Shown here: piece by piece, positions 23,799-40,007 of the stretch | Layout of the letters: every line of letters starts with the position of its first letter | Position numbering within the stretch: the stretch's first letter is position 1 | Assembly: GCA_035274845.1 (NCBI GenBank) | Contig: DATENU010000004.1 | Span: 1 to 64,000 of the forward strand | Source of the DNA: Chthoniobacterales bacterium | GTDB lineage: Bacteria; Verrucomicrobiota; Verrucomicrobiia; Chthoniobacterales; UBA10450 | Direction of reading: 5' to 3' | DNA length: 64,000 nt | Notes under the pieces: model-generated | Told to the model about the DNA's origin: nothing | The model's input: the letters and a program-made list of their open reading frames with translations, nothing else | Database searches by the model: none | Program-made: the position numbers and the translations under genes

Positions 23799-24479
23799 AT
23801 GCCGGTCGAAGCTGTTTCGCGTCACGAGGAGGATCTCGCTTTTGTCCAGCGCGTCCTGGCGATTGACGCTTCCGCGGCCGCGGAGTTGCGCCGGCGCTAC
23901 CACGGAAAGCTGGTCGGAGTCCTGCGCTCTCGAGGAGCCACCCAAACGGAAGCGGAAGATCTGGTGGCCGACCTTTGGACCGATTGCTTTGCGGCGCGCG
24001 AGAATCGCCCGACGCTGCTGAACAAATACCAGGGTCGTTGCGCGTTGGAATCGTGGCTTCTCACGGTCGCTACTCACCGTCTGGTCGATCTGAAACGACG
24101 ACAGAGCTTTCGAGTCGAGGTTCCGGCCGCGACGCCAGAATCGCCCGAGGACTTCTTTGACCGCAGACCGCAGCCGGAAAAGCCGACTAGTGAAAAGCAT
24201 CTTCTTCAGCTGCTTCGCCAGGCGATTCAGTCCGCTTTTGCGAAACAGGAACCGGAAGCCGTCCTCATGTTGAAGCTGGTCCATCTCCATCAGGTGAGCC
24301 AGCGCGAGCTGGCCCGCATGTGGGGATGGCATGAATCAAAGATTAGCCGCACCCTGGATGTCACTCGCCAGAACGTGGCGCGCATTATCCTCGCTGAAAC
24401 GAAAAAGGTGGATCCATGGCTGGAGCTGCGCTGGGAGGATTTTGTGGAGCTTTGCGCGAGCTCTTCGGATGTTTTTTAG
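23799..24479 (+). CDS. ECF-type RNA polymerase sigma factor
   Basis: 226 residues. Region sigma-2 lies at ~30-100 (YHGKLVGVLRSRGATQTEAEDLVADLW, GRCALESWLLTVATHRLVDLKRR) and sigma-4 at ~140-205 with a helix-turn-helix (VSQRELARMWGWHESKISRTL). Lengths match ECF sigma factors. It is the first gene of a plus-strand cluster (small acidic protein, GAF protein, subtilase). No transmembrane anti-sigma factor is visible; the 79-residue protein that follows may fill that role. Confidence 0.88.
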   Translation: MPVEAVSRHEEDLAFVQRVLAIDASAAAELRRRYHGKLVGVLRSRGATQTEAEDLVADLWTDCFAARENRPTLLNKYQGRCALESWLLTVATHRLVDLKRRQSFRVEVPAATPESPEDFFDRRPQPEKPTSEKHLLQLLRQAIQSAFAKQEPEAVLMLKLVHLHQVSQRELARMWGWHESKISRTLDVTRQNVARIILAETKKVDPWLELRWEDFVELCASSSDVF

Positions 24480-24640: not shown

Positions 24641-24880
24641 TTGCCTGTGAATGATGATTTCAAAATTCTGTTGGAGTTCTTCGACGGCGACGTCCAGGAA
24701 GTTGCCGGGCGCTCGGCGCCCCCGATTACAGGAGAGCTTCAAGAGAGAATTGCCAGATTTGTCAGCGGGAAGTGCACCGAGGAAGAGCGGACCGAAATGA
24801 AAAAACTGCTTCAGGAAAAACCGCATTTGATTCCGGCCTTGGTCGCTGAAACCAAGGCGCTCAGGCAACCTCCGGAATGA
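24641..24880 (+). CDS. small acidic protein, possible anti-sigma partner
   Basis: 79 residues from a TTG (or a GTG two codons later). It has two helical segments: DDFKILLEFFDGDVQEVAG and ELQERIARFVSGKCTEEERTEMKKLLQEKP. The second resembles the short helical region of anti-sigma domains that precede zinc-finger or export segments, but there is no HXXXCXXC zinc motif and only one cysteine. It lies 160 bases after the sigma gene and overlaps the GAF gene by ATGA, so it belongs to the same cluster. Function unproven. Confidence 0.6.
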   Translation: MPVNDDFKILLEFFDGDVQEVAGRSAPPITGELQERIARFVSGKCTEEERTEMKKLLQEKPHLIPALVAETKALRQPPE

Positions 24881-25503
24881 AGCCTGCCACTCGCGCCAAT
24901 TTTCTGCCCGAGCCCCGCTTCGTTCCTCTGCGGCCCGCCCTCCAGGAACATCTCTCCAAGCTCGGCGCTGCGGTCACGCCGGATAATTTCCTGAGCATCT
25001 GCGACGAGATGCTGCTCAAGATTCTGCAGGAGACCTTTGCGCGAATCTCGGCCGACGAAGGCAGCATTTGGCTGCTGGACCCGGAGAAGGAAAATCTGGT
25101 GGTCGCTTACAATAGCGGGCCGAACTCGGATAAGATCATGGGGTTCAAGCAGCCAACCAGCAAGGGCATCATTAGCCTGGTCGTCGCCAGCGAGCATGCT
25201 TTCGTCGAGAACCAGGTCTATAAGAACGCCAAACATAGCGCCCTGCTCGACAACAAATTGCAAAAGACCACCTACGCGATGGTCGCCGTGCCATTCTATT
25301 TCCTCAATGAAGTGCGTGGAGTAATATCCTGCGTGCAGCTTCTCGACGTGGTGATCAAGGAAGGTGAGGCGTCCGCAACGGGAGAGACTCCAGCCGGCTT
25401 TGGACCGCCCGAGCTCAACGCCATCCAAACGATCGCGGCGGTGGTCAGAGACTTGATAGACTATCGGCTTCTCGGCACTGCTGTAGGATGGAACCGCCTC
25501 TAA
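24877..25503 (+). CDS. GAF-domain sensor protein
   Basis: 208 residues, a single GAF domain at ~40-195: SICDEMLLKILQETFARISA, DEGSIWLLDPEKENLVVAY, then KGIISLVVASEHAFVENQ and ALLDNKLQKTTYAMVAVPFY, the standard order of GAF strands. No output domain is attached. It therefore probably senses a small ligand and acts through a partner. The ATG overlaps the preceding stop (ATGA), and the subtilase start lies 16 bases inside its 3' end, so the three are strongly coupled. Confidence 0.82.
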   Translation: MKPATRANFLPEPRFVPLRPALQEHLSKLGAAVTPDNFLSICDEMLLKILQETFARISADEGSIWLLDPEKENLVVAYNSGPNSDKIMGFKQPTSKGIISLVVASEHAFVENQVYKNAKHSALLDNKLQKTTYAMVAVPFYFLNEVRGVISCVQLLDVVIKEGEASATGETPAGFGPPELNAIQTIAAVVRDLIDYRLLGTAVGWNRL

Positions 25504-26381
25504 CCCCAGATCCAAGTCCCTTCCGTCTGGAGGAAGCGCGGCGTGCCCTGGCAAAAGGCACCGGCAAAGGCGTGCGCGTGGCGGTGATCGACTCCGGAGT
25601 TGAAATTGACCATCCGGCCCTGGCCGGCCTTACCCTGCTCCACGATCTCCAGGTCGTGGACGCGGGCGTTCAAATCGAAGTGAAACCCGGCGATGGCGTG
25701 GATGTCTTCGGGCACGGCACCGCGGTGACAAGCGTGATCAAACGCATCGCCCCGGATGCCGAGATCGGGAGCTTCCGCGTTCTCGGGGCGAATCTCGGTT
25801 CTCGCACGGTAATTATTCGCGAAGGCGTCCGGCAGGCAATCGATCACGGGTATCGCGTTTTGAATTGCAGTTTCGGCTGTGGCTTGGCGGAACACATTTT
25901 TCAATACAAGGAATGGATCGACGAAGCCTATCTCAAGGGGATCCACATTATTTCCGCCTGTAACAATTACGATTTCACCACGCCGGAATGGCCCGGTTAC
26001 TTTCCAAGTGTGGTGACCGTGAACATGGCTCGCTTCGATGAGGATCACACTTTCTTCTATAAGCCGGGCCATCTCGTCGAATTCGCCGCGCGCGGGGTGG
26101 ATGTGACTCTGCCCTGGAACAACCACTCGTCGAAGGAAGTGACTGGCAGCAGTTTTGCCGCGCCGATCATGAGCGGCCTGGTCGCGCGGCTGATTTCGGA
26201 AATGCCGAACCTTGCGCCTCTCGAGGCCAAGTCGATCCTCCATCGTCTCGCGCTTCCGTGGCGCAGCGATGTCATGGCGCCTAACGTTGTCTCAGGCGCC
26301 ACTCCCGCGGCGGGCGGTGCCAAGGCTGGCAAACCTCCCCCTCAGGCGGCCCGGGCCGGCAAGCCTCCTCCATCAAGCTAA
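25488..26381 (+). CDS. cytoplasmic subtilisin-like (S8) serine protease
   Basis: 297 residues. The catalytic triad is intact: Asp35 (VAVIDSGVEIDHP), His76 (FGHGTAV) and Ser222 (GSSFAAP), with the oxyanion Asn in SACNN near 159. There is no signal peptide and no propeptide, unlike secreted subtilases, so it acts in the cytoplasm. It resembles the S8 proteases found with signalling or peptide-modification clusters. The C-terminal 30 residues are Ala/Gly/Pro/Lys-rich. The start overlaps the GAF gene by 16 nt. Plausible jobs are regulated proteolysis of the sigma/anti-sigma pair or of a peptide; both are inference. Confidence 0.9.
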   Translation: MEPPLTPDPSPFRLEEARRALAKGTGKGVRVAVIDSGVEIDHPALAGLTLLHDLQVVDAGVQIEVKPGDGVDVFGHGTAVTSVIKRIAPDAEIGSFRVLGANLGSRTVIIREGVRQAIDHGYRVLNCSFGCGLAEHIFQYKEWIDEAYLKGIHIISACNNYDFTTPEWPGYFPSVVTVNMARFDEDHTFFYKPGHLVEFAARGVDVTLPWNNHSSKEVTGSSFAAPIMSGLVARLISEMPNLAPLEAKSILHRLALPWRSDVMAPNVVSGATPAAGGAKAGKPPPQAARAGKPPPSS

Positions 26382-26417: not shown

Positions 26418-27662
26418 ATGGGAAAATCGCTTCTTTCGGTATCGATTATGTCCGGGCCTGCGGGGCCCGAATTGTTGAGACGGTTGGCGAAAGCTGAGAC
26501 AAACGTTCGATGGGGATTACTCGCATCCCCGAAACAAGGTGAAAGTCCGGCGTCCAATTCAGGGTCAACCAGCCTGTTCGTTGAAGAGCTGGCCCTCCCG
26601 CGCGCGGAAGAGGGTCATGGTCCGGAGCGAATAGCAAAGCAGATCAGGGAAGTCGCTGCCAGAAACGGGGTCGATCATTTGCTGATTGAATGCGACGCCG
26701 ACACTCCGGCAGTAGCTTTTGCCTCCCTCTTTCTACCGCAGGCGGAGCCAGCTCACTCTTTATCCGAGGCAACGAACTTAGCCGCGACTGTTTTTGCCAT
26801 CGCTCCGGATGATTTGCTCGATGCGTTAATCCATCGACGGGACACCCCGGATTCTGTCTCGCCCTGCTTCATCGCCGAGCAGCTGGAGTTTGCCAGCATC
26901 GCTTTCCTCGACGGCGCTGACGATGATCCGGCCTTCAGGCTCGCCCGAGAAATCGTAACGGTCCTCAATCCAGGCGCTCAGGTATTTGAGCCTTCCCAAC
27001 CCAATCTGGAACGAGTGCTCAAAGGCGCTGGCGATGTTTTTGATTTCGCCGCGGCCCTGGACGGTGCGGGATGGCGAAGGCTCATCGAGTCAGATTCTGC
27101 TGATGAAGCGCGCGGGGAGGTCCGGGCGTTTGCTTACCATGCTCGGAAGCCGTTTCATCCCGAGAGATTCTGGAATCTTGTTCAAGGAAGTTTCCCGGGA
27201 GTTTTTCGCGCGAAAGGGTTCTTCTGGCTCGCGAGTCGGATGGACCTTGTGGGTGGACTTAACCTGGCCGGCACCGAGTCTCATTACGCTTCCGCCGGCC
27301 AATGGTGGGCCGCTCGTGACAATCATGCCCGGGAATTCCAGATGCCGGCCCGCACCCGAAAGGAATGGAGGGAACCATTCGGCGATCGCCGCCAGGCAAT
27401 CGCCTTCATGGGAGTTGGGCTCGACGCGGATTCATTACGAACGCAACTCGACTCCTGTCTCCTGACGGAGGCGGAATTGGCGGCGGGAACGGAGAGCTGG
27501 CACGAACTCGTCGATCCTTTCCCCTCCTGGTCATCGCATCACCACCATCATCATGATCACGGCGAGGAGTGCGACCACGAACACGATCACGAGCATGAGC
27601 ATGAGCATGAGCATGAGCACGAGCACGAGCACGAGGACGAGGACGAGCACAGCCATCATTGA
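26418..27662 (+). CDS. CobW-C/ZNG1-like protein lacking a P-loop, with His/Glu metal-binding tail
   Basis: 414 residues. The C-terminal CobW domain is clear at ~235-310 (AFAYHARKPFHPERFW, FRAKGFFWLASR). The N-terminal part keeps the outline of the G domain (LIECDADTPAVAFASLF; AATVFAIAPDDLLDAL) but has no Walker A motif: where GxxxxGK(S/T) should be it reads SGPAGPELLRRLAK. The last ~42 residues are a His/Asp/Glu tail with six histidines in a row and about ten Glu-His pairs. The family delivers zinc or other metals. Without a P-loop, GTP hydrolysis is unlikely, so this may act as a metal buffer or accessory. Confidence 0.8.
   Translation: MGKSLLSVSIMSGPAGPELLRRLAKAETNVRWGLLASPKQGESPASNSGSTSLFVEELALPRAEEGHGPERIAKQIREVAARNGVDHLLIECDADTPAVAFASLFLPQAEPAHSLSEATNLAATVFAIAPDDLLDALIHRRDTPDSVSPCFIAEQLEFASIAFLDGADDDPAFRLAREIVTVLNPGAQVFEPSQPNLERVLKGAGDVFDFAAALDGAGWRRLIESDSADEARGEVRAFAYHARKPFHPERFWNLVQGSFPGVFRAKGFFWLASRMDLVGGLNLAGTESHYASAGQWWAARDNHAREFQMPARTRKEWREPFGDRRQAIAFMGVGLDADSLRTQLDSCLLTEAELAAGTESWHELVDPFPSWSSHHHHHHDHGEECDHEHDHEHEHEHEHEHEHEHEDEDEHSHH
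27591..27632 (+). repeat. hexanucleotide repeat encoding Glu-His pairs
   Basis: Seven uninterrupted units of GAGCAT (x4) and GAGCAC (x3), followed by degenerate GAGGAC/GAGCAC units. Within the tail of the CobW-like gene it encodes alternating Glu and His. Length variation by slippage would add or remove metal-binding pairs in frame. Confidence 0.85.
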
Positions 27663-27778: not shown

Positions 27779-29674
27779 GTGTCGGACCTGCCTGAAGTTA
27801 AGAACGCGCCCAGCGCCACCGTTGCCCTTCACGAACTGTGGCGGCGACGAACGGACTGGATCGAGGATATCCAGGCGGTCCACGCGTTCGTGAAGCGCGC
27901 TCTTTCCGCCGGTGAATTTCTCGCCGCCTACGACGCGGTTCGCGCGGCCCTGGAGGTTCATCCGGGAGACGACTGGCTCGAACAACGAATGGCCCTGTCT
28001 CTTGCCCAAATGGGCTCCTCCGCCCGCGCCCAGGCTATTCTCAACGCGCTGGTCGCCAAGGACCCACAAAATCGGGAGACGCTGAGCATTCTCGGCCGAA
28101 CCTACAAAGACCAATGGTGCGCCAATCCCGCCAACGAGCAGTACCTCAGACAATCGTTCGATTGCTACAATCGCGCCTTCGAGGTGCAACCTGCCGAGTC
28201 GTACCCGGGAATAAATGCGGCCACGATCGCTTTCCTCCTGAAGGAAACGGATAAAGCCAACCGGATAGCCAGGACTGTCCTGGAGATTTGCCGGGAACAA
28301 CCGGACGACTATTGGAAGCACGCCACCGTGGCCGAAGCTTTGGTTGTCCTGGGCGACGAAAAAGGCGCGAGGGAGGCGTATAAGGCAGCCGTCGCCGCGG
28401 AGAGCGACAATCTGCGGGCCTTTTCTTCCACCAGAAAACAAGCGCGGGTTCTCTCGCGGCATCTCTACGACCGGGCGGACGCTTTCGATGATTGTTTTCC
28501 CATTCCGAAGCTGGTCGTTTTTTCCGGCCACATGGTTGACGCGCCCGACAGGCGCACGCCCCGGTTTCCGCAGGCAAAGGAAGCCGAGGTCAAACAGCTC
28601 CTTGAAAAGCAGCTCGCCTCCATGAATGCGGGCATAGGATTCTCGAGCGCGGCTTCCGGCTCGGACATTCTTTTCCTCGAAGCGATGCTGGCGCGCGGTG
28701 GCACGATCCATCTCGTCCTGCCCTGGCCGGCGGAAGAGTTTGTTAAAACGAGTGTTGAAATAGCGGGGGGCGACTGGTCGGAGCGATTCGAAAAGGTCCT
28801 GGCCAAGGCGGCTTCGATCCGGGTCCTGGGAGAACTCTACATGCCGGGCAGTGCGACCGGGTTTGAGTACTGCAATCTCGCCATGAACGGCCTGGCTCGA
28901 GTTTTCGCACGATCCCTCGATTTGGAAATCACTCCGCTCGCGGTGTGGGATGGATTCGCGGGAGCTCCCGGCGGAACCGGCTCGTTTGTTCGTTACTGGC
29001 GCAACCATCGGGTGCCCGTAAAGGTTGTCCCGATAGCTACCCAACCGCCGTCGATGCTGAACAGCACCGAGACCTTCGAGACCGACGCCGCCGATCACGA
29101 TGACGAATTTGAAGTCTGGGTGCGCGCCTCGGGACGGCAGGAGATCAAGGCGATCATGTTCGCCGATGTAGTCGGCTACAGTAAGCTGCCCGAGACCGTG
29201 ATTCCAAGGTATGTCGCGCAATTCAACCAAAGAGTCTCACGGCTCATGGCGGACAGCCCGGCGGCGCCGATAAATGTCAACACCTGGGGCGATGGCCTCT
29301 ACTTCGCCTTCAATGGGGTTGAAGATGCCGGTCGTTTCGCCCTCGACCTTCGAGATCTCGTCACCAAAACCAATTGGGTCGATTTGGGACTGCCGAAAAA
29401 TCTGAGCATTCGCATTGCCCTTCACGCCGGCCCTGTTTACGTGAACTTCGATCCCGTCGTCCGCCAGATTAACTTTACCGGCGCCCATGTCAGCCGCGCG
29501 GCGCGGATCGAGCCGATCACCCACGAAGGCGAAGTGTTCACGAGCGAAGAATTCGCGGCGCTGGCGGCCGCCGATCAATCGAAAGGCTTCACCTGCGACC
29601 TCGTCGGCACCACCGCCCTGGCCAAGAGTTACGGGTTGTTCCGGATCTATAGCCTGGAACGCACGACCGATTAG
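27779..29674 (+). CDS. TPR-S (TRAFs-binding) / SLOG-like / class III nucleotide cyclase fusion
   Basis: 631 residues from a GTG. Residues ~25-220 are TPR-S helices of the TRAFs-binding type (ALSLAQMGSSARAQAIL, LGRTYKDQW, AESYPGINAATIAFLL). Residues ~244-400 form an alpha/beta domain beginning PKLVVFSGHMVDAPDRR with SAASGSDILFLEAMLARGG and HLVLPWPAEEF, a SLOG-like nucleotide-binding fold. Residues ~455-630 are a guanylate/adenylate cyclase domain: metal-binding Asp in IMFADVVGYSKL (~462) and NTWGDGLYFAF (~504). No signal peptide or membrane segment, so cytoplasmic. TPR-S and SLOG domains have been linked to nucleotide-based conflict signalling. The stop overlaps the stop of the convergent SLOG gene (TTAG). 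Confidence 0.85.
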   Translation: MSDLPEVKNAPSATVALHELWRRRTDWIEDIQAVHAFVKRALSAGEFLAAYDAVRAALEVHPGDDWLEQRMALSLAQMGSSARAQAILNALVAKDPQNRETLSILGRTYKDQWCANPANEQYLRQSFDCYNRAFEVQPAESYPGINAATIAFLLKETDKANRIARTVLEICREQPDDYWKHATVAEALVVLGDEKGAREAYKAAVAAESDNLRAFSSTRKQARVLSRHLYDRADAFDDCFPIPKLVVFSGHMVDAPDRRTPRFPQAKEAEVKQLLEKQLASMNAGIGFSSAASGSDILFLEAMLARGGTIHLVLPWPAEEFVKTSVEIAGGDWSERFEKVLAKAASIRVLGELYMPGSATGFEYCNLAMNGLARVFARSLDLEITPLAVWDGFAGAPGGTGSFVRYWRNHRVPVKVVPIATQPPSMLNSTETFETDAADHDDEFEVWVRASGRQEIKAIMFADVVGYSKLPETVIPRYVAQFNQRVSRLMADSPAAPINVNTWGDGLYFAFNGVEDAGRFALDLRDLVTKTNWVDLGLPKNLSIRIALHAGPVYVNFDPVVRQINFTGAHVSRAARIEPITHEGEVFTSEEFAALAAADQSKGFTCDLVGTTALAKSYGLFRIYSLERTTD

Positions 29675-30339
29675 CCCGGCGGCAAATCGCCGATTATTTC
29701 CACGCGTTGCCGGGTTCCGCTCACGGCTTCCGTCGTCGTGCGCGGCGTCACAATCTGAATGGTTCGGCCGTAGCGCGAAGGATCGATTTCGTGGGCTCGC
29801 TCAGTTTTCGTTCCAACCCAATGTTCACGCCGCTTCCGGACCCACGCCGTGCCGCCTTTCTTGTTGTTCTCGCGGCCATCCCAAAGAAGGAGCAGAACGT
29901 CGCTGCGTCGTGCGATGAAATCACCCATCTCAGCATAACGGTCCGCGCGAACCTGCCCGCCGCCTGCCTCGGACGAGCCGGAGGCGCCGGGCACTTCCCA
30001 GCTGGATTCCGCGGCCGCCAGCATTCGCCGAAACTCCTCGAGAGAGTCAGCGTTGGGAAAGTCTTGCTCGTATTCTTTCTGTGCCAGGGGCAGCGGCACC
30101 CGGAGTTTTGCCCCGCACGCCAGGGCAACTTCCGCGACCAAACGATCCGCGCCTTCGGCGAGTGGACTCAACAATTCAAAGGGCGCGTCCGGGTAGGCGG
30201 CACGAAAGCGTGAGAAGATGAATTGAAGTTGGGCGCGGATCTCCGGCACGGCCGCGGGCAGAGGATCGCGGTGTCCACTCACGCCAAAGATCAGCGGGGT
30301 TTTGCCGGCGTCTGTCTGCAAATGCTTCTCCCCGCCCAT
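29671..30339 (-). CDS. SLOG-type predicted nucleotide-sensing protein
   Basis: 222 residues from an ATG; an upstream GTG at 30372 is an alternative. It opens with PLIFGVSGHRDPLP and continues FELLSPLAEGADRLVAEVAL, ACGAKLRVPLPLAQKEYEQDF and ARRSDVLLLLWDGR, the strand-helix order and conserved GHRD and EGADR motifs of a SLOG (LOG/DprA-like) Rossmann fold. Such domains bind or cleave nucleotide derivatives. Convergent with the TPR-S/cyclase gene, whose middle domain appears to be of the same fold, so the pair may act on one signal (inference). Confidence 0.72.
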   Translation of the reverse strand: MGGEKHLQTDAGKTPLIFGVSGHRDPLPAAVPEIRAQLQFIFSRFRAAYPDAPFELLSPLAEGADRLVAEVALACGAKLRVPLPLAQKEYEQDFPNADSLEEFRRMLAAAESSWEVPGASGSSEAGGGQVRADRYAEMGDFIARRSDVLLLLWDGRENNKKGGTAWVRKRREHWVGTKTERAHEIDPSRYGRTIQIVTPRTTTEAVSGTRQRVEIIGDLPPG

Positions 30340-30894: not shown

Positions 30895-33800
30895 CTAGCG
30901 CCAGTCGCCCATCAAAATGAAGGGCGCCCAGTAAAGCGGACGCGAATACTTGGGATTCTTGAGCAGCTTGATCTCAGCACCCTGGAGCGCTTCTGCTTTG
31001 GAGGCGCCGGCGGCAAGCTGGCGGTAGAATTCGACCATTAGTTCTTTCGTGCTTTCGTCGCCAACGCTCCACAAACTGGCGAGGACGGTAGTAGCTCCGG
31101 CGCTCGAAAACGCTTCAGCCAGGGTCGTGATCTCGCCGCCATCGGGTTCCTTGTCACCAAGGGCTGACTCGCAGGCGGACAACGTCACGAGCGTGACTTT
31201 CTTGAATGGCAAATCCCAAACTTCGCCGACCGTGAGATGGGATTGCTCCGTGTTCGGAGAGGCCGCAAGCTGGATATAGCTTTCCGACGGAGTGGTCGCG
31301 TTTAGGATCCCGTGAGTGGCGAAATGCACGATTCGTTTGTTCAACCGTTGCTCGGTGCTCAACGCCACCTTGGTCACGTCGCCACCGGAAAGAACTTCGG
31401 TTGAAGGAAACACCTGGGCGATGGCTTTTACTTCGCTTTCCGCCGCTGGCAGATTGGCGCCCGTCGGGTTGCCAAACGCCACCATCCCGTCGCGCGATTT
31501 TTCTTCATCGGGGAGTTGCACGACTTTCATCACGTCAGCCGCGGTCAGGTAAACGATTTGCTTGTCTTCGACAAAATATCTGGTCGAGCCGTCCGGCATC
31601 TTTTTTGCCAGGGCCTGCATCGGCAGATAGAACAATAATTGATTTGGAATGAAGGCAGCGACCTTCATCGGTTCCAGGTCCGATTCGATCGGAGCGATGA
31701 GGGAATCGTATAGACTCATCAGGTTCTTGGTCAGAGGCGCGCCGGACTCGCCGCTAATTATCTGTTTGCGCAACGTCTTGATTTTCTTCCAAAGCTCCTC
31801 CGGTTTGGCCGGCGCAATGACGATCTTGACGTTCTCCTTGCTGACCAGAAAGACGTAGAGCTGCTCGCCCAGCGGCGCGTATTGGATCAGCATCACGCCG
31901 GCCGGGATGCTCCGCTGGGTTTCCTTGAGCGCCTTCGGATTGACCGTCATGAACTTCTCGTAGTTTGGGTTCGAGGCCTTGATCTGCTCGACGACTTTCC
32001 GGAACTCTCCCTGGGTCGTGGCTACGACCTGTTTCAAATTTTCTATCTTCGCTTTGTCCCGGTCCGCCTCCGGTTTGCTCTGCTCAGCCTGAAGCTGGGC
32101 GTTTGTGGTCTGGAGCCTTGTCTCCAGGCCGTTGGCGCGGTCGAGGAGAGCTTGCAGGCCTTTGTCGCCGCTCTTCATGCTCGAGAGGCGCAGCGATTCC
32201 TGGAGTTTCTTCGATTTCGCCCGGTTAAGGTAATCGAAAGCCTCGTCGACCCGGTTCAGCTTGAGCAAAGCCCGGACGATCCGCTCGTACGGGCGATAGT
32301 TGCGTTTCACGTCGGCAAAGGACGTTTCCGACGCCGCTGTCGCCCGGATGCTCTCGATCAGCTTGACCGCTTCCTTATACTCCGTGAGCGCTTTATCATT
32401 CTCTCCGCGCGCTTCGAAAATCTCGCCGCTGATTCCGAGCGTGCCGATCCGATCGTTTACCGAGCCGGTCTTGGCATCGGCGGCCTGGGCTTCGTCGATC
32501 AGCTTTTTGGCGTCGTCGAGCTTATTCTGTTTCAGGCGAATGGAGGCAAAGGTCCGGACCGAACCGGAGAGCGCTCCCAGATTACTGGTCTTTCGAGCCA
32601 GGACGACGGCTTCATCCGCGTACTTTGCTGCTTCGTCCAGCTTCTCCTGGTCGCGCGCGATAACGGCGAGAAAGTTGGTGGCGTTTACGACGCTATTGAT
32701 TTTGTGAGCGGCGGCGAAGATTTGCCGCGCTTGCTCGATAAGATGCCGGGCGCCATCCAGGTCGCCTTTTTGATAGGCCAGGTCGGCAGCCTGGACAATG
32801 GATTGGGCGGTCCACTCGTCCTGGCCCATGCTGCGCTTGAGCGTGATCGCCTCGTTCAATTCCTTCAGGGCGGTATCGATCTCACCACTGTCCGCATGGA
32901 GCGACGCCATGTCGCCCAGGACGCGAGCGCGAACTCGCGCGCGGAACAGTTCGAAGAGGTTGAGGTAACCGCCCTTGGGAAGATCGTCGGCCACCTTGAA
33001 CGCCTTTTGCCCGAAGGAAAAAGCGGTCTTCAAGTCTCCTTCTTCCTGGCTGATCTCCGCGAGATTCATTAACGCCATGGCCTGGGACATCGCGTCGAGC
33101 GCGATTTTCATGTCGCGAGTCTGCGCCTGCTTTTCCTCGTGCTTGGCCAGCTCCTCTTTCGACATCTTCGGTTTTTGCTCGGCGGAAAAGTATTTGTCTT
33201 CATCGAGCGCCTTTTTCCGCACCGCCGCGGATGACTCAATACTCACGAGGGTTTGTTGAAAGTAATCGCGCGCCTTTTTGAGATCGCCGATGTTGTAGGC
33301 GTACATCCGCGCGAGTGAGCTCAGGCTCTCGTCCAATTTGCGCTCGGCCATTTCGACCGGGAGCGCCTGGCGCAAAGCAAGCGCCTCCAGGCCGTGCTTC
33401 TCCGCCTTTTCAAAGAGCGCCAGCTCGGCTTCCGCGCTGGCCACTCTTTCGAGCGCAGTCGCGATCTGCGCATTTTTTTCATCCAGCTCGTCCTTGGGGG
33501 CGGAGACCTTCTGTAGATAGGCCATTTCCGCGCGTCGGATCTCCAGCTCCTGCTCGCAGTACTTCAGCAGGTTCTCGGAGTCATAATTGTCGCGGGCGAT
33601 CGTCTCGAGCATCGTGATCGCGTTATACCGGTTGAGATAACGGAGCTTTTCCCAGCCGTGCATCAGTTTCTGGAGAATCGCCTTCTTAGCCTCGTCGGCC
33701 GTGGCGAGCTGGGCCCTCTCGTCCTTGATCTGATCGTCCACCTTTCCGTCGAGCTCGACGGCGGTGACGCGCAAATATTCCTCCCAGTACCGCTTCGCGG

Positions 33801-34101
33801 CGAGATGACTCTCGTCCTTGAGCTTCGCGCTGGTCGCGAACCAGGTGGCGGCTTCGTCGAATTTGGAGGCATCGAAGGCAAGCCATCCGATATCGGACGC
33901 GATTTGCATCGCATTCTTGTCAGCCTCGGCCCGTTCCTTGGTGTTCTCCGGCAACGCTGCCCGGTCGGCGTCGGCCTTCTTGAATTGCGCCTCCAAGGTC
34001 GCGCGATCCGGCTTTGGTTTCTCATGCGCGTCCATCGGCCAATGGATCGCCATGATGGCGAGGACAATGGCAATAAACGGAAAGCGAGTGAGACTCTTCA
34101 T
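30895..34101 (-). CDS. TPR-CHAT caspase-like protease, exported
   Basis: 1068 residues from an ATG ten codons inside the frame, chosen because it starts a signal segment (SLTRFPFIAIVLAIMAIHW). Residues ~40-640 are TPR-like helical repeats, including ALKELNEAITLKRSMGQ and AKKLIDEAQAADAKTG. A coiled-coil stretch (~650-720) precedes the CHAT domain at ~760-1068. The His-Cys catalytic pair is present: His930 in HFATHGIL and Cys977 in LSACESALGD, followed by EAFSSAGATTVLASLW. It is a separase/caspase-fold peptidase. Last gene of a three-gene operon with the CHASE2-cyclase 48 bases upstream. Exported CHAT proteases are common in this phylum; substrate unknown. Confidence 0.92.
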   Translation of the reverse strand: MKSLTRFPFIAIVLAIMAIHWPMDAHEKPKPDRATLEAQFKKADADRAALPENTKERAEADKNAMQIASDIGWLAFDASKFDEAATWFATSAKLKDESHLAAKRYWEEYLRVTAVELDGKVDDQIKDERAQLATADEAKKAILQKLMHGWEKLRYLNRYNAITMLETIARDNYDSENLLKYCEQELEIRRAEMAYLQKVSAPKDELDEKNAQIATALERVASAEAELALFEKAEKHGLEALALRQALPVEMAERKLDESLSSLARMYAYNIGDLKKARDYFQQTLVSIESSAAVRKKALDEDKYFSAEQKPKMSKEELAKHEEKQAQTRDMKIALDAMSQAMALMNLAEISQEEGDLKTAFSFGQKAFKVADDLPKGGYLNLFELFRARVRARVLGDMASLHADSGEIDTALKELNEAITLKRSMGQDEWTAQSIVQAADLAYQKGDLDGARHLIEQARQIFAAAHKINSVVNATNFLAVIARDQEKLDEAAKYADEAVVLARKTSNLGALSGSVRTFASIRLKQNKLDDAKKLIDEAQAADAKTGSVNDRIGTLGISGEIFEARGENDKALTEYKEAVKLIESIRATAASETSFADVKRNYRPYERIVRALLKLNRVDEAFDYLNRAKSKKLQESLRLSSMKSGDKGLQALLDRANGLETRLQTTNAQLQAEQSKPEADRDKAKIENLKQVVATTQGEFRKVVEQIKASNPNYEKFMTVNPKALKETQRSIPAGVMLIQYAPLGEQLYVFLVSKENVKIVIAPAKPEELWKKIKTLRKQIISGESGAPLTKNLMSLYDSLIAPIESDLEPMKVAAFIPNQLLFYLPMQALAKKMPDGSTRYFVEDKQIVYLTAADVMKVVQLPDEEKSRDGMVAFGNPTGANLPAAESEVKAIAQVFPSTEVLSGGDVTKVALSTEQRLNKRIVHFATHGILNATTPSESYIQLAASPNTEQSHLTVGEVWDLPFKKVTLVTLSACESALGDKEPDGGEITTLAEAFSSAGATTVLASLWSVGDESTKELMVEFYRQLAAGASKAEALQGAEIKLLKNPKYSRPLYWAPFILMGDWR

Positions 34102-34149
34102 GGCACAACCAACAACGCTGCTCTGGTTCATCTTTGCAGAAGAAGAAAA

Positions 34150-36258
34150 TTATTTTGTGGTGAGGTGATAAATGCCGTTCCAATCCGCCGGCGGATTGCT
34201 GGCCAGTTCCCGGCAGCGTTCGACCATGATGGCGCTTGTTTTGTCCTGCCGGCTATCACGCAAATCCGCAAACATTCCTTCGGCGGTGAGGAAACTGCCT
34301 CGTTCGTATTCGACAAAAGCCTGGTTATACCGTTCAAGCGTCTCATCAAAATGATCCGGGCTGTGGGGATGCTTCACTTCAAGCAATTCCAACGGAGTTG
34401 ATTTTCCCTTCACAATCGCCCGGTCGACCACCCGGACTTGGGGCGGATGGGATAGCTTCACATAAGCTTCGCGCGTTATGAGAAAGAGAACGCCGTAGTA
34501 TTTCGTGAGGGATTCGACGCGCGCCGCGGCGTTGATGAGGTCGCCCACCAGTCCGTAATCGAGGCGTTGGGCGGAACCTTTGTTCCCGATCAGCGCCGTC
34601 CCGCTATGCAGAGCCACCCCGTATCCAAACAGCGCTTTCAACTTTGGCTCGAGATTAGTCCGCAGCTCTTCCATTCCCGCGATGAGACTAAGCGCGGCCC
34701 GAAAAGCACGATCGGCCGCGTCCGGTTGCGCGTTCGGAGCCCCCCAATAGCTGAGAAACTGGTCGCCGAGAAAATGTTCCATGCTGCCGTCCTCGGCCAG
34801 GATCGCATGCGTCTGGGTTTCAAAGACCTGGTTGAGAAGCTTGAACATGCCGCCAGGTCCGAGCAATTCGGCGATCGATGTCGAATTGCGCAGGTCGGTG
34901 AGCAGAACCGTAATCTCGGCCTGTTGCGGCTCCATCGATCCAGGGTTCTTCAGCACCTGCTCCATGATGTGCGGGGAAAAGTAGAGACTCATGGTCGAAC
35001 GAAGCTTGAGGCGCTGGATGAACTCGTGGCTTTGCCTTCGCCCAAGTTCGACAAAGGTGACCAGGCTCCAGACGACGTTCGCGGACATCAACCCCGGAAC
35101 CCATCCCGACTTCAAAATCAGGAATGCGCTCAAGGCGCAAAGGGCCGCCACGCCCGCGATCCAAAACAGAAGAAGGGCCACCGTGCCGCGGAAGAAGGTC
35201 GCGACCGCTCCCAGGATAATCAGGGCAAGCACACCAGCAGCATCGATCCAGGCTGGGGTCCGCCGGAGCCAGGCACGCTGGATAAGATCGTTCAGCGCCG
35301 TGGAATGAAGGACAACCCGCGGCTGGTTTGCTGCGATCGCAGTCGTCCCCATATCACCCAGCCCGGCGCCATAATACGCGACGAGGACGATCGCATTCGC
35401 CAACGGTTGGGCGTTGCTCGGGTGACTTGTTTGATAAAGAGCGTCGAGCTGCTCGACATTGTAATGGCGAAAGGTCCCGGACCCCCTCCCCGTCCAGGGA
35501 CTTCGGTAGTTCAACAGAATCGGCGCCAGCTTCAGCTCCCGCGGCTCAACCGTCGTAAAATCGCTCGATAACTCCTCCCAGCGCAGCGCGCCCGGCTTCA
35601 CGATAGTGACTCCCTCCCAGGCGATGTCGCGCCACGCCAGATAGCAGGCCAGCGCCAGCGACGGTTCATACTTATCCGAGCCGGCCGGATGAGCATAATC
35701 ATAACGACGCAACACGCCGTCGCCGTCAGCCTGCACATTGATCAAGCCGGCCGGCAGCACTCGTTCGCGAAACGGAAAGGACCGGATCCGTTCCTCGCTT
35801 CCGGCTTCGGGCGACGGCAGCAGCGCCTCGGCGAAAACGATCGCTCGGTTTTGCCCTTTGATCCGTTCCACTTCCTTGAGAATCGGATCAGCCATGGCTT
35901 CGTTGCCGCGGCCAAAGACCACGTCGAACGCCACGACCTTCGCCCCCATCTCAAACGCTTGTCGAATAACGTTCGCCGCATTTTGATACTCCAACTCCAG
36001 CGTCGGCACCTTCCGCAAGTCCGCTTGCGTAACGTCGACATGAACAATGCTCGGGTCGGCCGGAGGCGCCTGTCCGCGCTCGTATCTCCAGCGCAGAATC
36101 TGGCCAAACCAGCGCATCTCCAGTCCTTCAAGCGGATTTCCCGCCAGCAGAATCCAGAGAGCAGCCCCGCCGCAAAGGGCGAGGAGAAGAGGCCAGGGCG
36201 ATCTCAGCCAGACCTGCTCACCGGAGGGCTTTTTCCTGGCCGAATTGCCAGGCATCAT
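34150..36258 (-). CDS. CHASE2-domain transmembrane class III adenylate/guanylate cyclase
   Basis: 702 residues. An N-terminal helix (PWPLLLALCGGAALWILLAG) leads to an extracytoplasmic CHASE2 sensor at ~45-330 (IVHVDVTQADLRKV, GAKVVAFDVVFGRGNE), then three membrane helices at ~335-405 and a cytoplasmic cyclase domain at ~440-610 with LLTDLRNST and FLGDQFLSYWG carrying the two metal-binding Asp. A short helical C-terminal segment follows. It should make a cyclic nucleotide in response to a periplasmic signal. The ATG overlaps the stop of the secreted-protein gene (ATGA), and the CHAT protease gene follows, so signal maker and protease are co-expressed. Confidence 0.9.
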   Translation of the reverse strand: MMPGNSARKKPSGEQVWLRSPWPLLLALCGGAALWILLAGNPLEGLEMRWFGQILRWRYERGQAPPADPSIVHVDVTQADLRKVPTLELEYQNAANVIRQAFEMGAKVVAFDVVFGRGNEAMADPILKEVERIKGQNRAIVFAEALLPSPEAGSEERIRSFPFRERVLPAGLINVQADGDGVLRRYDYAHPAGSDKYEPSLALACYLAWRDIAWEGVTIVKPGALRWEELSSDFTTVEPRELKLAPILLNYRSPWTGRGSGTFRHYNVEQLDALYQTSHPSNAQPLANAIVLVAYYGAGLGDMGTTAIAANQPRVVLHSTALNDLIQRAWLRRTPAWIDAAGVLALIILGAVATFFRGTVALLLFWIAGVAALCALSAFLILKSGWVPGLMSANVVWSLVTFVELGRRQSHEFIQRLKLRSTMSLYFSPHIMEQVLKNPGSMEPQQAEITVLLTDLRNSTSIAELLGPGGMFKLLNQVFETQTHAILAEDGSMEHFLGDQFLSYWGAPNAQPDAADRAFRAALSLIAGMEELRTNLEPKLKALFGYGVALHSGTALIGNKGSAQRLDYGLVGDLINAAARVESLTKYYGVLFLITREAYVKLSHPPQVRVVDRAIVKGKSTPLELLEVKHPHSPDHFDETLERYNQAFVEYERGSFLTAEGMFADLRDSRQDKTSAIMVERCRELASNPPADWNGIYHLTTK

Positions 36259-37860: not shown

Positions 37861-40005
37861 CTACGAGTTGTCCGCCTGCTGAATGAGCGCGTCCAACCGG
37901 TTCAGATCCACGGGTTTGATCAGATGGTGATTGAACCCGCCGTCATGGCTGCGCCGGAGATCCTCCTCCATTCCAAAACCGGTCAGGGCGATACCGAAAA
38001 TGGGGTGATCATTCCTGAGTTTCTGCATGAGCTCGATCCCGCTGCCGTCCGGCAAGCCAATGTCGCTCACCAGGACATCGAAATGCTCGTGCGCCGCGGC
38101 CTCCAGAGCCGATTGGACACTGTTCGCCGTCTGGACGTGATATCCGCGACGCCTGAGGAGCTGGGTAAGGGATCGATTGGTGTCCTCATGGTCATCCACC
38201 ACCAAAACGCGCATCGATTTCCGGGCGGGCGGAGTGGCCGCAACGCTGCCGCTGCCCGCGTCTGCGTCCCGCTCGGCGATGGGGAAAAAAGCCGTGAAGG
38301 TAGCGCCCTTGTCTTTGCCCTCGCTTTCCGCGGTGAGCTTTCCGCTGTGGGTCTCAACGAGCGCTTTGCTGATCGCGAGCCCAAGGCCCAGTCCACCCAG
38401 CCGGCTCCGGTCGCCCTGCTCAAAGGCGTTGAAAATCTTCGGCAACGTTTCCGCGTCGATCCCCATTCCGTTATCGGAAATTTCCACGCGCAACTGCCCC
38501 TCCTCGTTCCGCGTCCGAATCTCGAGGCGTCCGCCGGCGGGCGTAAATTTCACCGCGTTCTTGATCAGGTTCCAAAAGATTTGCTGTAACCGGGCCGGAT
38601 CGGCTTTGAGAGAGACTCTCTCCGCCGCGAATTCGGTCCGTAGCGAAAGCCCTTTCTTGTCGATATCCGCCTGGCAAATTTCAAGGGCGCTGCGAAGCAG
38701 GACATGCGCATCGACCATCTCCAGGCTTAATTGCACCTTGCCTTTGCTGATCCGGGTGAGATCGAGCAGGTCGTCGATCAGCCGCGCTTCGAGCTCAACG
38801 TTGCGCCGGATCATCTGGAGCGAGGCGCGCAATTCGTCAGGCAAATCGGCGGTGTGTTCGAGGGCGTAGACGGACGTCAGGACTGGCGTAAGCGGTGTCC
38901 GCAGCTCGTGGCTCAGCATCGCCAGGAACGAATCCTTGGCGCGATTCGCGCGCTCGGATTCGGCACGGGCTTTTTGGGCTGACTTGTAGAGGCGGGCATT
39001 ATCGAGCGCGAGTGCGGCCCGGTGCGCCAGTTCTTCCGCCAGGGAAAGTTCCTCCGGCCCGCAGATTCGGCCCGGACTCGTATTGATCATCACAATCGCG
39101 CCCAGAACGCGGTCCTGCGCCCGTAGCGGGACGGCGATAAAGGACCGGGCAGACAGGGAACGAAGCCAGTCTCGATCGGCCTTTTCCGTAAAGACTTCAC
39201 GCAACTCGCCATTGTGAACGTCGCAGACCATCTGCGATTTCCCGGTACTCAAGACGTGCGCCCCGGTTTTTTGGGCGGCTGCGCTCGGCGGAAATTCCTC
39301 AGCTAATTTCTGCAGGGCCGGCTCATCGGCCGAATCACGATGCGCGACGGCGACGTGATGCATCGCACCGTCTTCTTCGGCGGCCAGAACGACACAAAAA
39401 TCGGCAACCCGTGGCACGACCAGCGCAGCCAGGTTGCGAAAGGTCTCCTCGTAATCGAGCGAGCCGCCGAGGACGTTGCTGGCATCGGCGAGAAAGGCGA
39501 GCCGTTCCTGGCGCGCTTCGGCTTCCGCGCGGGCCGCCTGTTCGCGAATGAGTTTCTCGCGCTCCTCCGCCTGCCGCTTTACCTGCTCGGTTTTTTTGAA
39601 GAGGTCGACGAACACCGCGATCTTCGCCCGCAGGATTTCCGGGACGACCGGGGTGAGAATGTAATCGACCGCCCCGATCGAGTAACCACGCGAGACGTGC
39701 GTTTCGGTGTCGTTCACCGCGCTGATGAAAATGATCGGCGTGGTCTCGGACCGCGGGCGCTGCCGGATCAGCGCGGCGGTTTCGAAGCCGTCCATTACGG
39801 GCATGTTTACGTCGAGCAGGATCACCGCGAAATCCTGTTTGAGCAGGCAACGCAGCGCTTCCTTTCCCGAACGCGCGCAGACGATATTCTCATTCAGCTC
39901 GGCGAGGATCGTCTCATAAGCCAGCATCTTGTCGGGCCGATCGTCGACAATCAGGATGCTGACCCTCTTCTCGGTCGCTTCCTTCGTGCTGGGATCTCCG
40001 GGCAT
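37861..40005 (-). CDS. REC-GAF-HisKA-HATPase-REC hybrid sensor kinase
   Basis: 714 residues. N-terminal receiver at ~15-135 (ILIVDDRPDKM, LLDVNMPVMDG, and the conserved Lys position reads TPVV, so this REC lacks the canonical Lys-Pro pair). A coiled coil leads to GAF (~185-340); HisKA has His366 (LSHELRTPL); HATPase has N and G boxes (NLIKNAVKF, DNGMGID, GLGLGLAIS); a C-terminal receiver at ~600-710 has VSDIGLPDG and KPVD. Cytoplasmic, with no membrane segments. The ATG follows the stop of the HAMP-array kinase by two bases (TGACCATG), so the two kinases are co-translated. Confidence 0.92.
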   Translation of the reverse strand: MPGDPSTKEATEKRVSILIVDDRPDKMLAYETILAELNENIVCARSGKEALRCLLKQDFAVILLDVNMPVMDGFETAALIRQRPRSETTPIIFISAVNDTETHVSRGYSIGAVDYILTPVVPEILRAKIAVFVDLFKKTEQVKRQAEEREKLIREQAARAEAEARQERLAFLADASNVLGGSLDYEETFRNLAALVVPRVADFCVVLAAEEDGAMHHVAVAHRDSADEPALQKLAEEFPPSAAAQKTGAHVLSTGKSQMVCDVHNGELREVFTEKADRDWLRSLSARSFIAVPLRAQDRVLGAIVMINTSPGRICGPEELSLAEELAHRAALALDNARLYKSAQKARAESERANRAKDSFLAMLSHELRTPLTPVLTSVYALEHTADLPDELRASLQMIRRNVELEARLIDDLLDLTRISKGKVQLSLEMVDAHVLLRSALEICQADIDKKGLSLRTEFAAERVSLKADPARLQQIFWNLIKNAVKFTPAGGRLEIRTRNEEGQLRVEISDNGMGIDAETLPKIFNAFEQGDRSRLGGLGLGLAISKALVETHSGKLTAESEGKDKGATFTAFFPIAERDADAGSGSVAATPPARKSMRVLVVDDHEDTNRSLTQLLRRRGYHVQTANSVQSALEAAAHEHFDVLVSDIGLPDGSGIELMQKLRNDHPIFGIALTGFGMEEDLRRSHDGGFNHHLIKPVDLNRLDALIQQADNS

Positions 40006-40007
40006 GG

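What the first reader, a model, noticed from the sequence alone, without database searches (positions are those of the whole stretch)
27779..30339. TPR-S / SLOG-like / cyclase fusion facing a second SLOG protein: candidate nucleotide-signalling conflict system
One protein joins a TRAFs-binding TPR module, a SLOG-like nucleotide-binding domain and a class III cyclase, so it may both make and sense a nucleotide. The neighbour is a stand-alone SLOG protein with which it shares overlapping stop codons (TTAG). TPR-S and SLOG domains were predicted to act in nucleotide-based immunity, but a cyclase in the same chain is unusual.
Basis: partly seen in the sequence, partly recalled or inferred. Interest (0 to 1): 0.78.

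Follow-up and report, generated by a model that had tools for sequence, protein, structure and literature searches.

The report
Nucleotide sensor fused to nucleotide cyclase
A bacterial protein joins a scaffold, a nucleotide-binding sensor and a cyclic-nucleotide-making enzyme in one chain, and its relatives often sit next to immune-type genes, which suggests that it turns one alarm molecule into another.

Summary
Window 27779-29674 ("TSC") is TPR-S + SLOG + class III-type cyclase. The middle domain, modelled alone at pLDDT 93, matches YpsA at Z 18.0, then DprA, LOG and TRPM2. The facing gene is its homologue (hhalign E 3.8e-17).
The fusion is a conserved, patchy family: 42 proteins compared. 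28 of 42 keep both metal aspartates, with an unusual base pocket; 14 of 42 lack one or both.
The facing SLOG gene is a genus-level partner only: in the same 5 of 8 genomes as the window-type TSC, adjacent in 4. More telling neighbours are TIR genes (12 of 41 other loci) or a sigma/GAF/subtilase set (8 of 41), not both in any flank seen; the window has the latter. RyR domains, reported to bind and cleave cADPR, recur in relatives.
Best reading: a relay that senses an NAD-derived alarm nucleotide and makes a cyclic mononucleotide for a protease or TIR output. Ligand, product and immunity are inferred. New variant of TPR-S conflict systems.

The parts
27779..29674 (+). TSC protein, 631 aa: TPR-S scaffold + SLOG + class III-type cyclase
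   Evidence: ORF; Pfam; AF2 model pLDDT 85.2, pTM 0.83
27806..28483 (+). TPR-S / TRAFs-binding TPR part (residues about 10-235)
   Evidence: Pfam TPR-S 1.9e-20, MAP3K_TRAF_bd 1.8e-11; ASK1 central regulatory region 5ulm Z 20.9 (232 aligned, rmsd 2.8) and E 7.9e-6 by profile, among generic TPR proteins
28484..29041 (+). SLOG domain, YpsA-like (residues 236-421)
   Evidence: own model pLDDT 93.4; YpsA 2nx2 Z 18.0; motifs G250-H251, G294-x-D296, W390-D391-G392
29108..29671 (+). class III-type cyclase domain (residues 444-631); metal Asp D463 and D505, N501 at the adenine-lysine position, N565 at the partner-Asp position, S572 at the transition-state Asn position, R576
   Evidence: Pfam; CyaB 3r5g Z 21.2; profile alignments to solved cyclases; residue table
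29671..30339 (-). stand-alone SLOG protein (SLOG2), 222 aa, convergent, 4-base overlap with TSC
   Evidence: hhalign to the TSC SLOG domain E 3.8e-17; weak YAcAr/DprA/YpsA hits among family members
25488..26381 (+). small subtilase (S8); Asp, His and Ser motifs kept in all 10 rows aligned; no signal peptide by eye
   Evidence: Pfam 1.1e-24; alignment; neighbour of TSC in relatives
24877..25503 (+). GAF-like protein; the start of S8 overlaps its end
   Evidence: Pfam GAF_2 9.6e-5, under the curated cut-off; neighbour of TSC in relatives
23799..24479 (+). sigma-70-type factor
   Evidence: Pfam Sigma70_r2 7.9e-7; neighbour of TSC in relatives
26418..27662 (+). CobW-like protein with CobW C-terminal domain, no recognisable P-loop at its N-terminus (by eye), His-rich tail; genus-level neighbour
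   Evidence: Pfam CobW_C 1.3e-20
30895..34131 (-). TPR-CHAT protein, genus-level neighbour (membership of the system doubtful)
   Evidence: Pfam CHAT 2.9e-62
34150..36258 (-). CHASE2-cyclase protein, genus-level neighbour (membership of the system doubtful)
   Evidence: Pfam CHASE2 1.6e-28, Guanylate_cyc 1.1e-10; PADLOC PycC 1.7e-16

Best explanation
TSC is a signal relay. Its N-terminal half (TPR-S scaffold plus YpsA-like SLOG domain) receives a nucleotide-derived alarm ligand, most likely an NAD+-derived one of the ADP-ribose/cyclic-ADP-ribose kind. Ligand binding pairs the C-terminal class III-type cyclase domains, which then make a 3',5'-cyclic mononucleotide. The second messenger switches on an output encoded nearby: in the window, the GAF-like protein and the co-encoded intracellular subtilase (with a sigma factor); in other lineages, TIR proteins. 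SLOG2 would be an accessory binder of the same ligand (tuner or sink). Shown: architecture, SLOG and cyclase folds (on models), homology of the two SLOG parts, retained catalytic Asp/Asp/Arg, conserved contexts. Inferred: ligand, product, direction of signalling, GAF as receiver, role of SLOG2, role in immunity.
For: SLOG fold of the YpsA type, the clade said to include cADPR-sensing members (PMC9503650, passages). TPR part is TPR-S and like ASK1's central regulatory region. Both metal Asp and the Arg are kept in the window and in 28 of 42 proteins in all, window included. A TIR gene lies within 2 kb of TSC in 12 of 41 other loci, five of them one clade; within 5 kb in 5 of 11 genomes against 0.28 expected, or 3 of 9 with one genus counted once (P about 0.001); in one genome (89% complete) the only TIR_2 match is the TSC neighbour. 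C-terminal RyR domains in relatives (Pfam in the three RyR-type proteins scanned, L058, L065, L066; H-x-x-W pattern in six by alignment); phage RyR proteins were reported to cleave or bind 2'/3'cADPR (PMC13232231, preprint, abstract and passages). Sigma/GAF/S8 context makes 3 changes on the tree, although the GAF family is rare (5 of 288 genomes). A plasmid operon joins PycTM, a TPR-S/cyclase fusion of the same NTWGD type and a RyR protein.
Against: No TIR lies near the window's TSC although its genome has 26 TIR_2 matches. 21 of 41 other loci show neither a TIR within 2 kb nor the sigma/GAF/S8 set in the flank held (L066, with a TIR at 4.7 kb, is among the 21, and some flanks are short). GAF+S8 also occur without TSC in 2 genomes. 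14 of 42, 13 of them one clade, lack one or both metal aspartates, so cyclase output is not needed there. The RyR and PycTM links come from relatives, not from the window. TSC itself has no PADLOC match better than PycC E 0.016. No phage or viral-contig relatives were found. No diagnostic cyclic-nucleotide-binding motif was recognised in the GAF-like protein.
Confidence: 0.4

Rival explanations
1. The TPR-S/SLOG half is the working part (a nucleotide-processing enzyme or sensor that acts on partner proteins) and the cyclase domain is mainly a nucleotide-binding regulator, whose catalysis is dispensable.
For: A clade of 13 relatives (support 100/99) lacks one or both metal aspartates but kept SLOG motifs; the non-canonical base pocket fits reduced or altered catalysis.
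Against: 28 of 42 keep Asp, Asp and Arg, and the cyclase domain of the window's lineage is under strong constraint (pN 0.057-0.062 against three relatives). L063 shows the reverse: SLOG motifs lost, cyclase intact.
Confidence: 0.2
2. An ordinary chromosomal stress or developmental signalling protein, not immunity: nucleotide state is read and passed to a sigma factor and a protease.
For: Window-type TSC in 5 of 8 genomes of the genus, with the same upstream neighbours; GC like the rest of the window (0.590 v. 0.596); a sigma factor in the set; no TIR, SLATT or PycTM gene among the eight window proteins scanned with Pfam. The rest of the window was not scanned for defence families.
Against: Patchy in the phylum (10 of 288 genomes), also in Acidobacteria and Proteobacteria, whose rows branch among Verrucomicrobiota; a relative on a Caballeronia plasmid near TIR and DUF4231 genes; TIR neighbours elsewhere; the window's S8 matches the PADLOC models 'subtilase' (1.9e-23) and IetS (9.1e-7), which may only reflect the common fold.
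Confidence: 0.3
3. A Pycsar-like system: the cyclase makes cCMP or cUMP for a membrane or TIR effector.
For: One operon joins a TPR-S/cyclase fusion of the same NTWGD type with a PycTM effector; weak PADLOC PycC matches (window 0.016; L047 0.0042, L062 1.2e-6); adenylate and guanylate base-pair residues absent.
Against: No PycTM match in any of the 8 genomes of the genus; of 6 others searched, 2 have one, both far from or on another contig than TSC. N501/W503 of the window differ from the published base-contacting residues of EaPycC (F100, R142, Q144), BcPycC (Y50, D94, R97) and AnPycC (F60, K104, F109) (PMC11224242, passages). PADLOC gave no match for 3 other TSC proteins scanned (L063, L066, L114) and none for the Priestia fusion.
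Confidence: 0.1
4. The facing SLOG gene is an incidental convergent neighbour and the two genes are not a two-gene system (this can hold together with the best explanation).
For: Found next to TSC only in the genus; on another contig than TSC in one genome, where 1.3 kb past the TSC stop hold no SLOG2; protein changes 2.6-4.9 times as frequent as in TSC (pN 0.25-0.29 v. 0.05-0.11); convergent, so not one operon.
Against: Present in exactly the 5 of 8 genus genomes that hold the window-type TSC, adjacent and overlapping in 4, and homologous to the TSC SLOG domain.
Confidence: 0.4

Closest known systems
TPR-S conflict systems (Pfam PF20308; source paper recalled as Burroughs and Aravind 2020, J Bacteriol, not held in the library)
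   Same: TPR-S at the N-terminus; TIR neighbours in relatives, as with a TRAFs-binding/TPR-S gene beside SLATT and TIR genes on a Rhizobium plasmid
   Different: Here TPR-S is fused to a SLOG domain and a class III-type cyclase. Whether that paper lists this architecture could not be checked
Pycsar (PycC cyclase with PycTM or PycTIR effector)
   Same: Class III-type cyclase linked to TIR genes in relatives or, in one relative's operon, to PycTM
   Different: Extra sensor half in the same chain; different base-pocket residues; no PycTM in the genus; no cyclic-nucleotide-binding domain among the window proteins scanned
Thoeris (ThsB TIR plus SIR2-SLOG ThsA)
   Same: SLOG domain as predicted receiver of a TIR-made signal; TIR neighbours in relatives
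   Different: Fused to a cyclase, not to a SIR2 NADase; no TIR next to the window's gene
ASK1 (MAP3K5) central regulatory region
   Same: TPR part: Z 20.9 over 232 residues, profile E 7.9e-6, Pfam MAP3K TRAFs-binding
   Different: ASK1 has thioredoxin-binding, PH and kinase domains (PMC10972558, passages) instead of SLOG and cyclase
SLOG-SLATT effector proteins
   Same: SLOG part homologous to SLOG2; of five such longer relatives, SLATT_1 matches one over the cut-off and two below it
   Different: SLOG2 has no membrane domain

Membership tests
TPR-S (Pfam PF20308) | Score over the curated cut-off | tested here: met
   73.8 bits v. 27.6
SLOG superfamily | Rossmann-like SLOG fold | tested here: met
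   YpsA Z 18.0, DprA 12.4, LOG 10.5 on a pLDDT 93.4 model
SLOG superfamily | Match to a curated SLOG sequence family (not a strict requirement: the superfamily is wider than its Pfam models) | tested here: inconclusive
   Middle domain: no Pfam SLOG hit at E <= 1 in 32 members; SLOG2 family: only weak YAcAr 0.011, DprA 0.003, YpsA 0.063 in 13 members, none for the window protein
SLOG superfamily | Binds or processes a nucleotide | not testable with these tools
   needs protein
Class III nucleotidyl cyclase | Cyclase homology domain fold | tested here: met
   Pfam 2e-7; CyaB Z 21.2
Class III nucleotidyl cyclase | Two metal-binding aspartates | tested here: met
   D463, D505 in the window; 28 of 42 in the family
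Class III nucleotidyl cyclase | Canonical adenylate pair Lys/Asp or guanylate pair Glu/Cys (specificity, not membership) | tested here: not met
   N501 and N565; 27 of 28 intact members have Asn at the first place, none has Asp at the second; pairs as described in PMC4886424 (passages)
Class III nucleotidyl cyclase | Catalytic activity | not testable with these tools
   needs protein
Pycsar | PycC cyclase by PADLOC model | tested here: inconclusive
   E 0.016 for the window, 1.2e-6 for L062, 0.0042 for L047, none for L063, L066, L114
Pycsar | PycTM effector encoded nearby | tested here: not met
   PF18967: 0 of 8 genomes of the genus; met in the Priestia plasmid operon of a relative
Thoeris | TIR gene (ThsB) next to the SLOG protein | tested here: not met
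   None of 26 TIR_2 matches of the genome is on the window's contig; met in 12 of 41 relatives' loci
Thoeris | SIR2 or other ThsA-type effector fused to SLOG | tested here: not met
   No SIR2 match in TSC or SLOG2
Anti-phage defence system | Protects cells against phage | not testable with these tools
   needs phage challenge

The most novel reading that the evidence does not exclude
A two-messenger immune relay: an enzyme that reads an NAD-derived cyclic-ADP-ribose-type alarm (the Thoeris currency) through TPR-S/SLOG and converts it into a cyclic mononucleotide of non-canonical base made by a new Asn/Trp-pocket cyclase subtype, driving a GAF-gated protease in the window's lineage and TIR or PycTM effectors elsewhere. 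It would bridge Thoeris-like and Pycsar-like signalling and share its scaffold with the animal ASK signalosome.
Probability: 0.28. Interest if true: 0.88.

Novelty: new variant of a known kind. Interest (0 to 1): 0.62.

Why it matters
The bacterial nucleotide-immunity systems that I know of (recalled) are mostly one messenger deep: a synthase makes a signal and an effector reads it. A protein that reads one alarm nucleotide and makes another would be a second tier (amplifier, integrator or checkpoint). The family also gives testable material: intact, pseudo-cyclase, SLOG-dead and split natural variants, a cyclase subtype with an unusual base pocket, and an operon that ties TPR-S to a PycTM effector.

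Tried and rejected
Phage origin: P0001 and P0014 have no match in 50,697 phage records; SLOG2 and the cyclase profile find no relative in viral contigs. Simple Pycsar membership: rejected for the window (no PycTM in the genus; PADLOC E 0.016). Thoeris membership: rejected (no TIR neighbour, no SIR2). "SLOG2 is the core partner": not supported beyond the genus. Cyclic-nucleotide-binding motif in the GAF-like protein: I recognised none in the alignment, so GAF as receiver is a guess from context. PADLOC matches of neighbours, told for completeness: S8 'subtilase' 1.9e-23 and IetS 9.1e-7, CHASE2-cyclase PycC 1.7e-16; such models may only see the common fold.

Literature: TPR-S with SLOG and cyclase together gave no paper. 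In the listings of the further searches I saw no title or abstract start that describes this architecture, but I saw listings only, and the likely source paper is not held, nor the paper whose DOI I tried from memory for the 2015 SLOG survey. Two eLife conflict-system papers were searched for terms (passages only, 12 of 23 places): cNMP cyclases (both papers) and SLOG (the first) occur there in other systems.

Counts: of 48 TSC ORFs, 6 that are identical to another in their last 400 residues were dropped; with the window and with the split L039 counted once this leaves 42 proteins, 41 outside the window. Fragments L077 and L078 were left out. The GTDB scan used one peptide pattern, so 39 loci is a lower bound. 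The middle-domain model used 32 of the 42; the cyclase profile used 18, chosen among members with both aspartates, so favours intact TSC members. The tree used TPR-S and SLOG columns only, so that cyclase loss could be mapped on it; it has several long branches (L040, L063, L039, L073, L052, L033 and others) and a weak root. My notebook gives 40 for the loci outside the window; 41 is right. The chance estimate for TIR adjacency assumes even placement of TIR genes and covers only 11 genomes.
Full report
What is there. Window 27779-29674 (+) encodes a 631-residue protein, here TSC, and 29671-30339 (-) a 222-residue protein, here SLOG2; they converge and share TTAG at their stops. Pfam finds TPR-S (1.9e-20), the MAP3K TRAFs-binding domain (1.8e-11) and the class III cyclase domain (2e-7) in TSC, and nothing in its middle or in SLOG2. 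A ten-sequence AlphaFold model of TSC has mean pLDDT 85.2 and pTM 0.83. In the second-look alignment the cyclase part matches CyaB at Z 21.2, and the TPR part matches the ASK1 central regulatory region at Z 20.9 over 232 residues; repeats can inflate such scores, but a profile search also finds ASK1 (E 7.9e-6), among generic TPR proteins.

The middle domain. Modelled alone from 32 relatives (pLDDT 93.4), it matches B. subtilis YpsA at Z 18.0 (rmsd 2.5, 153 aligned), then DprA 12.4, ShosA 11.8, LOG 10.5, and the TRPM2 N-terminal region about 10. PMC9503650 (passages) states that the YpsA-like clade includes members that sense cADPR. SLOG2 is homologous to this domain (hhalign 98.9%, E 3.8e-17). 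Five longer relatives of SLOG2 were scanned: SLATT_1 matches L091 over the cut-off and L087 and L088 below it; L085 and L086 gave no SLATT match.

A family, not a freak. A scan of GTDB contigs with one peptide pattern gave 39 loci, and a scan of 288 genomes of the phylum gave matches in 25, about ten of them over most of the length. After removing duplicates, 42 proteins could be compared. By record title most named ones are Verrucomicrobiota, with one Acidobacterium, one Lysobacterales, two Arenicella, one Betaproteobacterium and one Glacieibacterium; the closest, L041 (91%), is a Chthoniobacterales bacterium, so the window is probably of that order. A profile of the cyclase domain finds, at E <= 1e-20, only TSC proteins in the phylum: 10 of 288 genomes, one each, one of them (G097) with the cyclase as a separate ORF. 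At most 11 first-look candidates per genome were scored and the profile was made from TSC rows, so this shows that the subtype is rare and usually in TSC, not that it never occurs elsewhere.

The cyclase. D463, D505 and R576 are in place in the window. The adenine-specifying lysine position holds N501 (in an NTWGD motif), the partner aspartate position N565, the transition-state asparagine position S572 (positions by alignment to solved cyclases; table). Among 42, 28 keep both metal aspartates and all 28 the arginine; 27 of the 28 have Asn at the lysine position and none has Asp at the partner position. PMC4886424 (passages) notes that the asparagine is replaced in the active cyclase Rv1900c and missing in several others. 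The pocket is neither the adenylate nor the guanylate type and differs from the published PycC residues (PMC11224242, passages). I therefore predict activity but not the base. In 14 of 42 one or both aspartates are lost: 13 form one clade (100/99) and one (L040) is a long, uncertain row. SLOG motifs mostly stay over the whole set (GH in 40 of 42, GxD in 39 of 42, WDG in 31 of 42). L063 shows the reverse, with SLOG motifs lost and cyclase intact.

Neighbours. In 41 loci outside the window, a TIR gene lies within 2 kb of TSC in 12, and two or three members of a sigma-factor/GAF/subtilase set lie beside it in 8; no locus has both in the flank held; 21 have neither, among them L066 with a TIR at 4.7 kb. 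In L032 and L039 the TIR gene is on the same strand within 20 bp; in L047 22 bp downstream. Five of the 12 (L036, L037, L038, L069, L070) are one clade. TIR_2 genes are not so common as to explain this: in one genome (89% complete) the only TIR_2 match is the neighbour of TSC, and over 11 genomes 5 adjacencies were seen where 0.28 were expected, or 3 of 9 with one genus counted once (P about 0.001). On the tree TIR context changes at least 7 times and the sigma/GAF/S8 context at least 3 times. The window has the second context: sigma factor, GAF-like protein, S8, a CobW-like protein and TSC on one strand, conserved in four other loci, L041-L044, at 77-91% TSC identity. S8 and GAF also occur together without TSC in 2 genomes, so they are a module of their own that TSC joins. 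The subtilase keeps its Asp, His and Ser motifs in all 10 rows aligned and has no signal peptide by eye.

SLOG2 as partner. SLOG2 occurs in exactly those 5 of 8 genus genomes that hold the window-type TSC (a sixth, G294, has only a weak match to a longer SLOG-SLATT protein). It is adjacent and overlapping in 4 and lies on another contig in the fifth (G291), where 1.3 kb past the TSC stop show no SLOG2. Its pN is 2.6-4.9 times that of TSC (0.25-0.29 against 0.05-0.11). It is best seen as a genus-level accessory.

What the ligand and output may be. Four features point to an NAD-derived input: TPR-S (recalled as predicted to recognise such signals), the YpsA-type SLOG fold, TIR neighbours, and RyR domains. 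RyR domains form the C-terminus of six relatives (Pfam in the three scanned, 2e-16 to 5e-21; the other three by alignment), and a 2026 preprint reports that phage RyR-domain proteins cleave or bind 2' and 3'cADPR and names H75, W78, H100 and D117 as ligand-contacting residues (PMC13232231, abstract and passages). The H-x-x-W pattern is present in 7 of 7 RyR sequences here. For the output, a Priestia plasmid operon contains a PycTM effector, two genes of unknown function, a TPR-S/cyclase fusion with the same NTWGD motif but no SLOG, and a RyR protein, with a TIR gene about 1.4 kb further on the other strand. A Rhizobium plasmid has an NTWGD cyclase fused to NUDIX. A Caballeronia plasmid has a TSC relative (26.5% identical) near TIR and DUF4231 genes, with AETAGDG in place of NTWGDG. 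PycTM was found in 2 of 14 searched TSC-bearing or genus genomes, in both away from TSC and in neither case in the genus. None of these outputs lies in the window itself.

Mechanism and limits. The most likely mechanism is a relay: NAD-derived alarm in, cyclic mononucleotide out, protease (window) or TIR (elsewhere) as executor. Architecture, folds (on models), homology and contexts are shown; ligand, product, direction and immunity are inferred. The pseudo-cyclase clade is the strongest result against a universal cyclase output, and the window's genome, with 26 TIR_2 matches and none near TSC, does not itself show the TIR link. A plain stress-signalling role cannot be excluded.

Noticed in passing
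window 26418-27662: CobW-like protein with CobW C-terminal domain and His-rich tail but no recognisable P-loop at the N-terminus (by eye); 44-56% identical in four close loci beside more conserved neighbours.
   Followed up: partly
genome G000: 26 TIR_2 matches in a 4.5 Mb genome, none near the TSC locus.
   Followed up: partly
L119 (Priestia aryabhattai plasmid NZ_CP128553.1), 1118-5744: Operon of PycTM, two genes of unknown function, cyclase/TPR-S fusion and RyR protein: a candidate Pycsar-like variant with a built-in TPR-S sensor.
   Followed up: partly
L118:3980-5053 (Rhizobium beringeri plasmid): NTWGD-type cyclase fused to a NUDIX domain, next to another gene annotated NUDIX hydrolase.
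   Followed up: no
L036, L037, L069, L075: Two or three TIR genes in a row next to TSC in Opitutaceae-type genomes.
   Followed up: partly
L038:10815-12254, L066:1702-3099, L070:1109-2575: Proteins with a C-terminal TIR near TSC; a SIR2_2 domain was confirmed by Pfam in L038 only, the other two were not scanned.
   Followed up: no
L106, L107: GAF-like + small subtilase pair (with a sigma factor in L107) without TSC: a separate small module in the same phylum.
   Followed up: partly
window 40008-46892 and 37861-40023: A 2294-residue ORF followed by an ORF that starts like a response regulator (by eye), downstream of the CHASE2-cyclase gene.
   Followed up: no
L114:5565-6956: 463-residue protein without Pfam match, overlapping the start of the Caballeronia TSC relative by 4 bases.
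   Followed up: no
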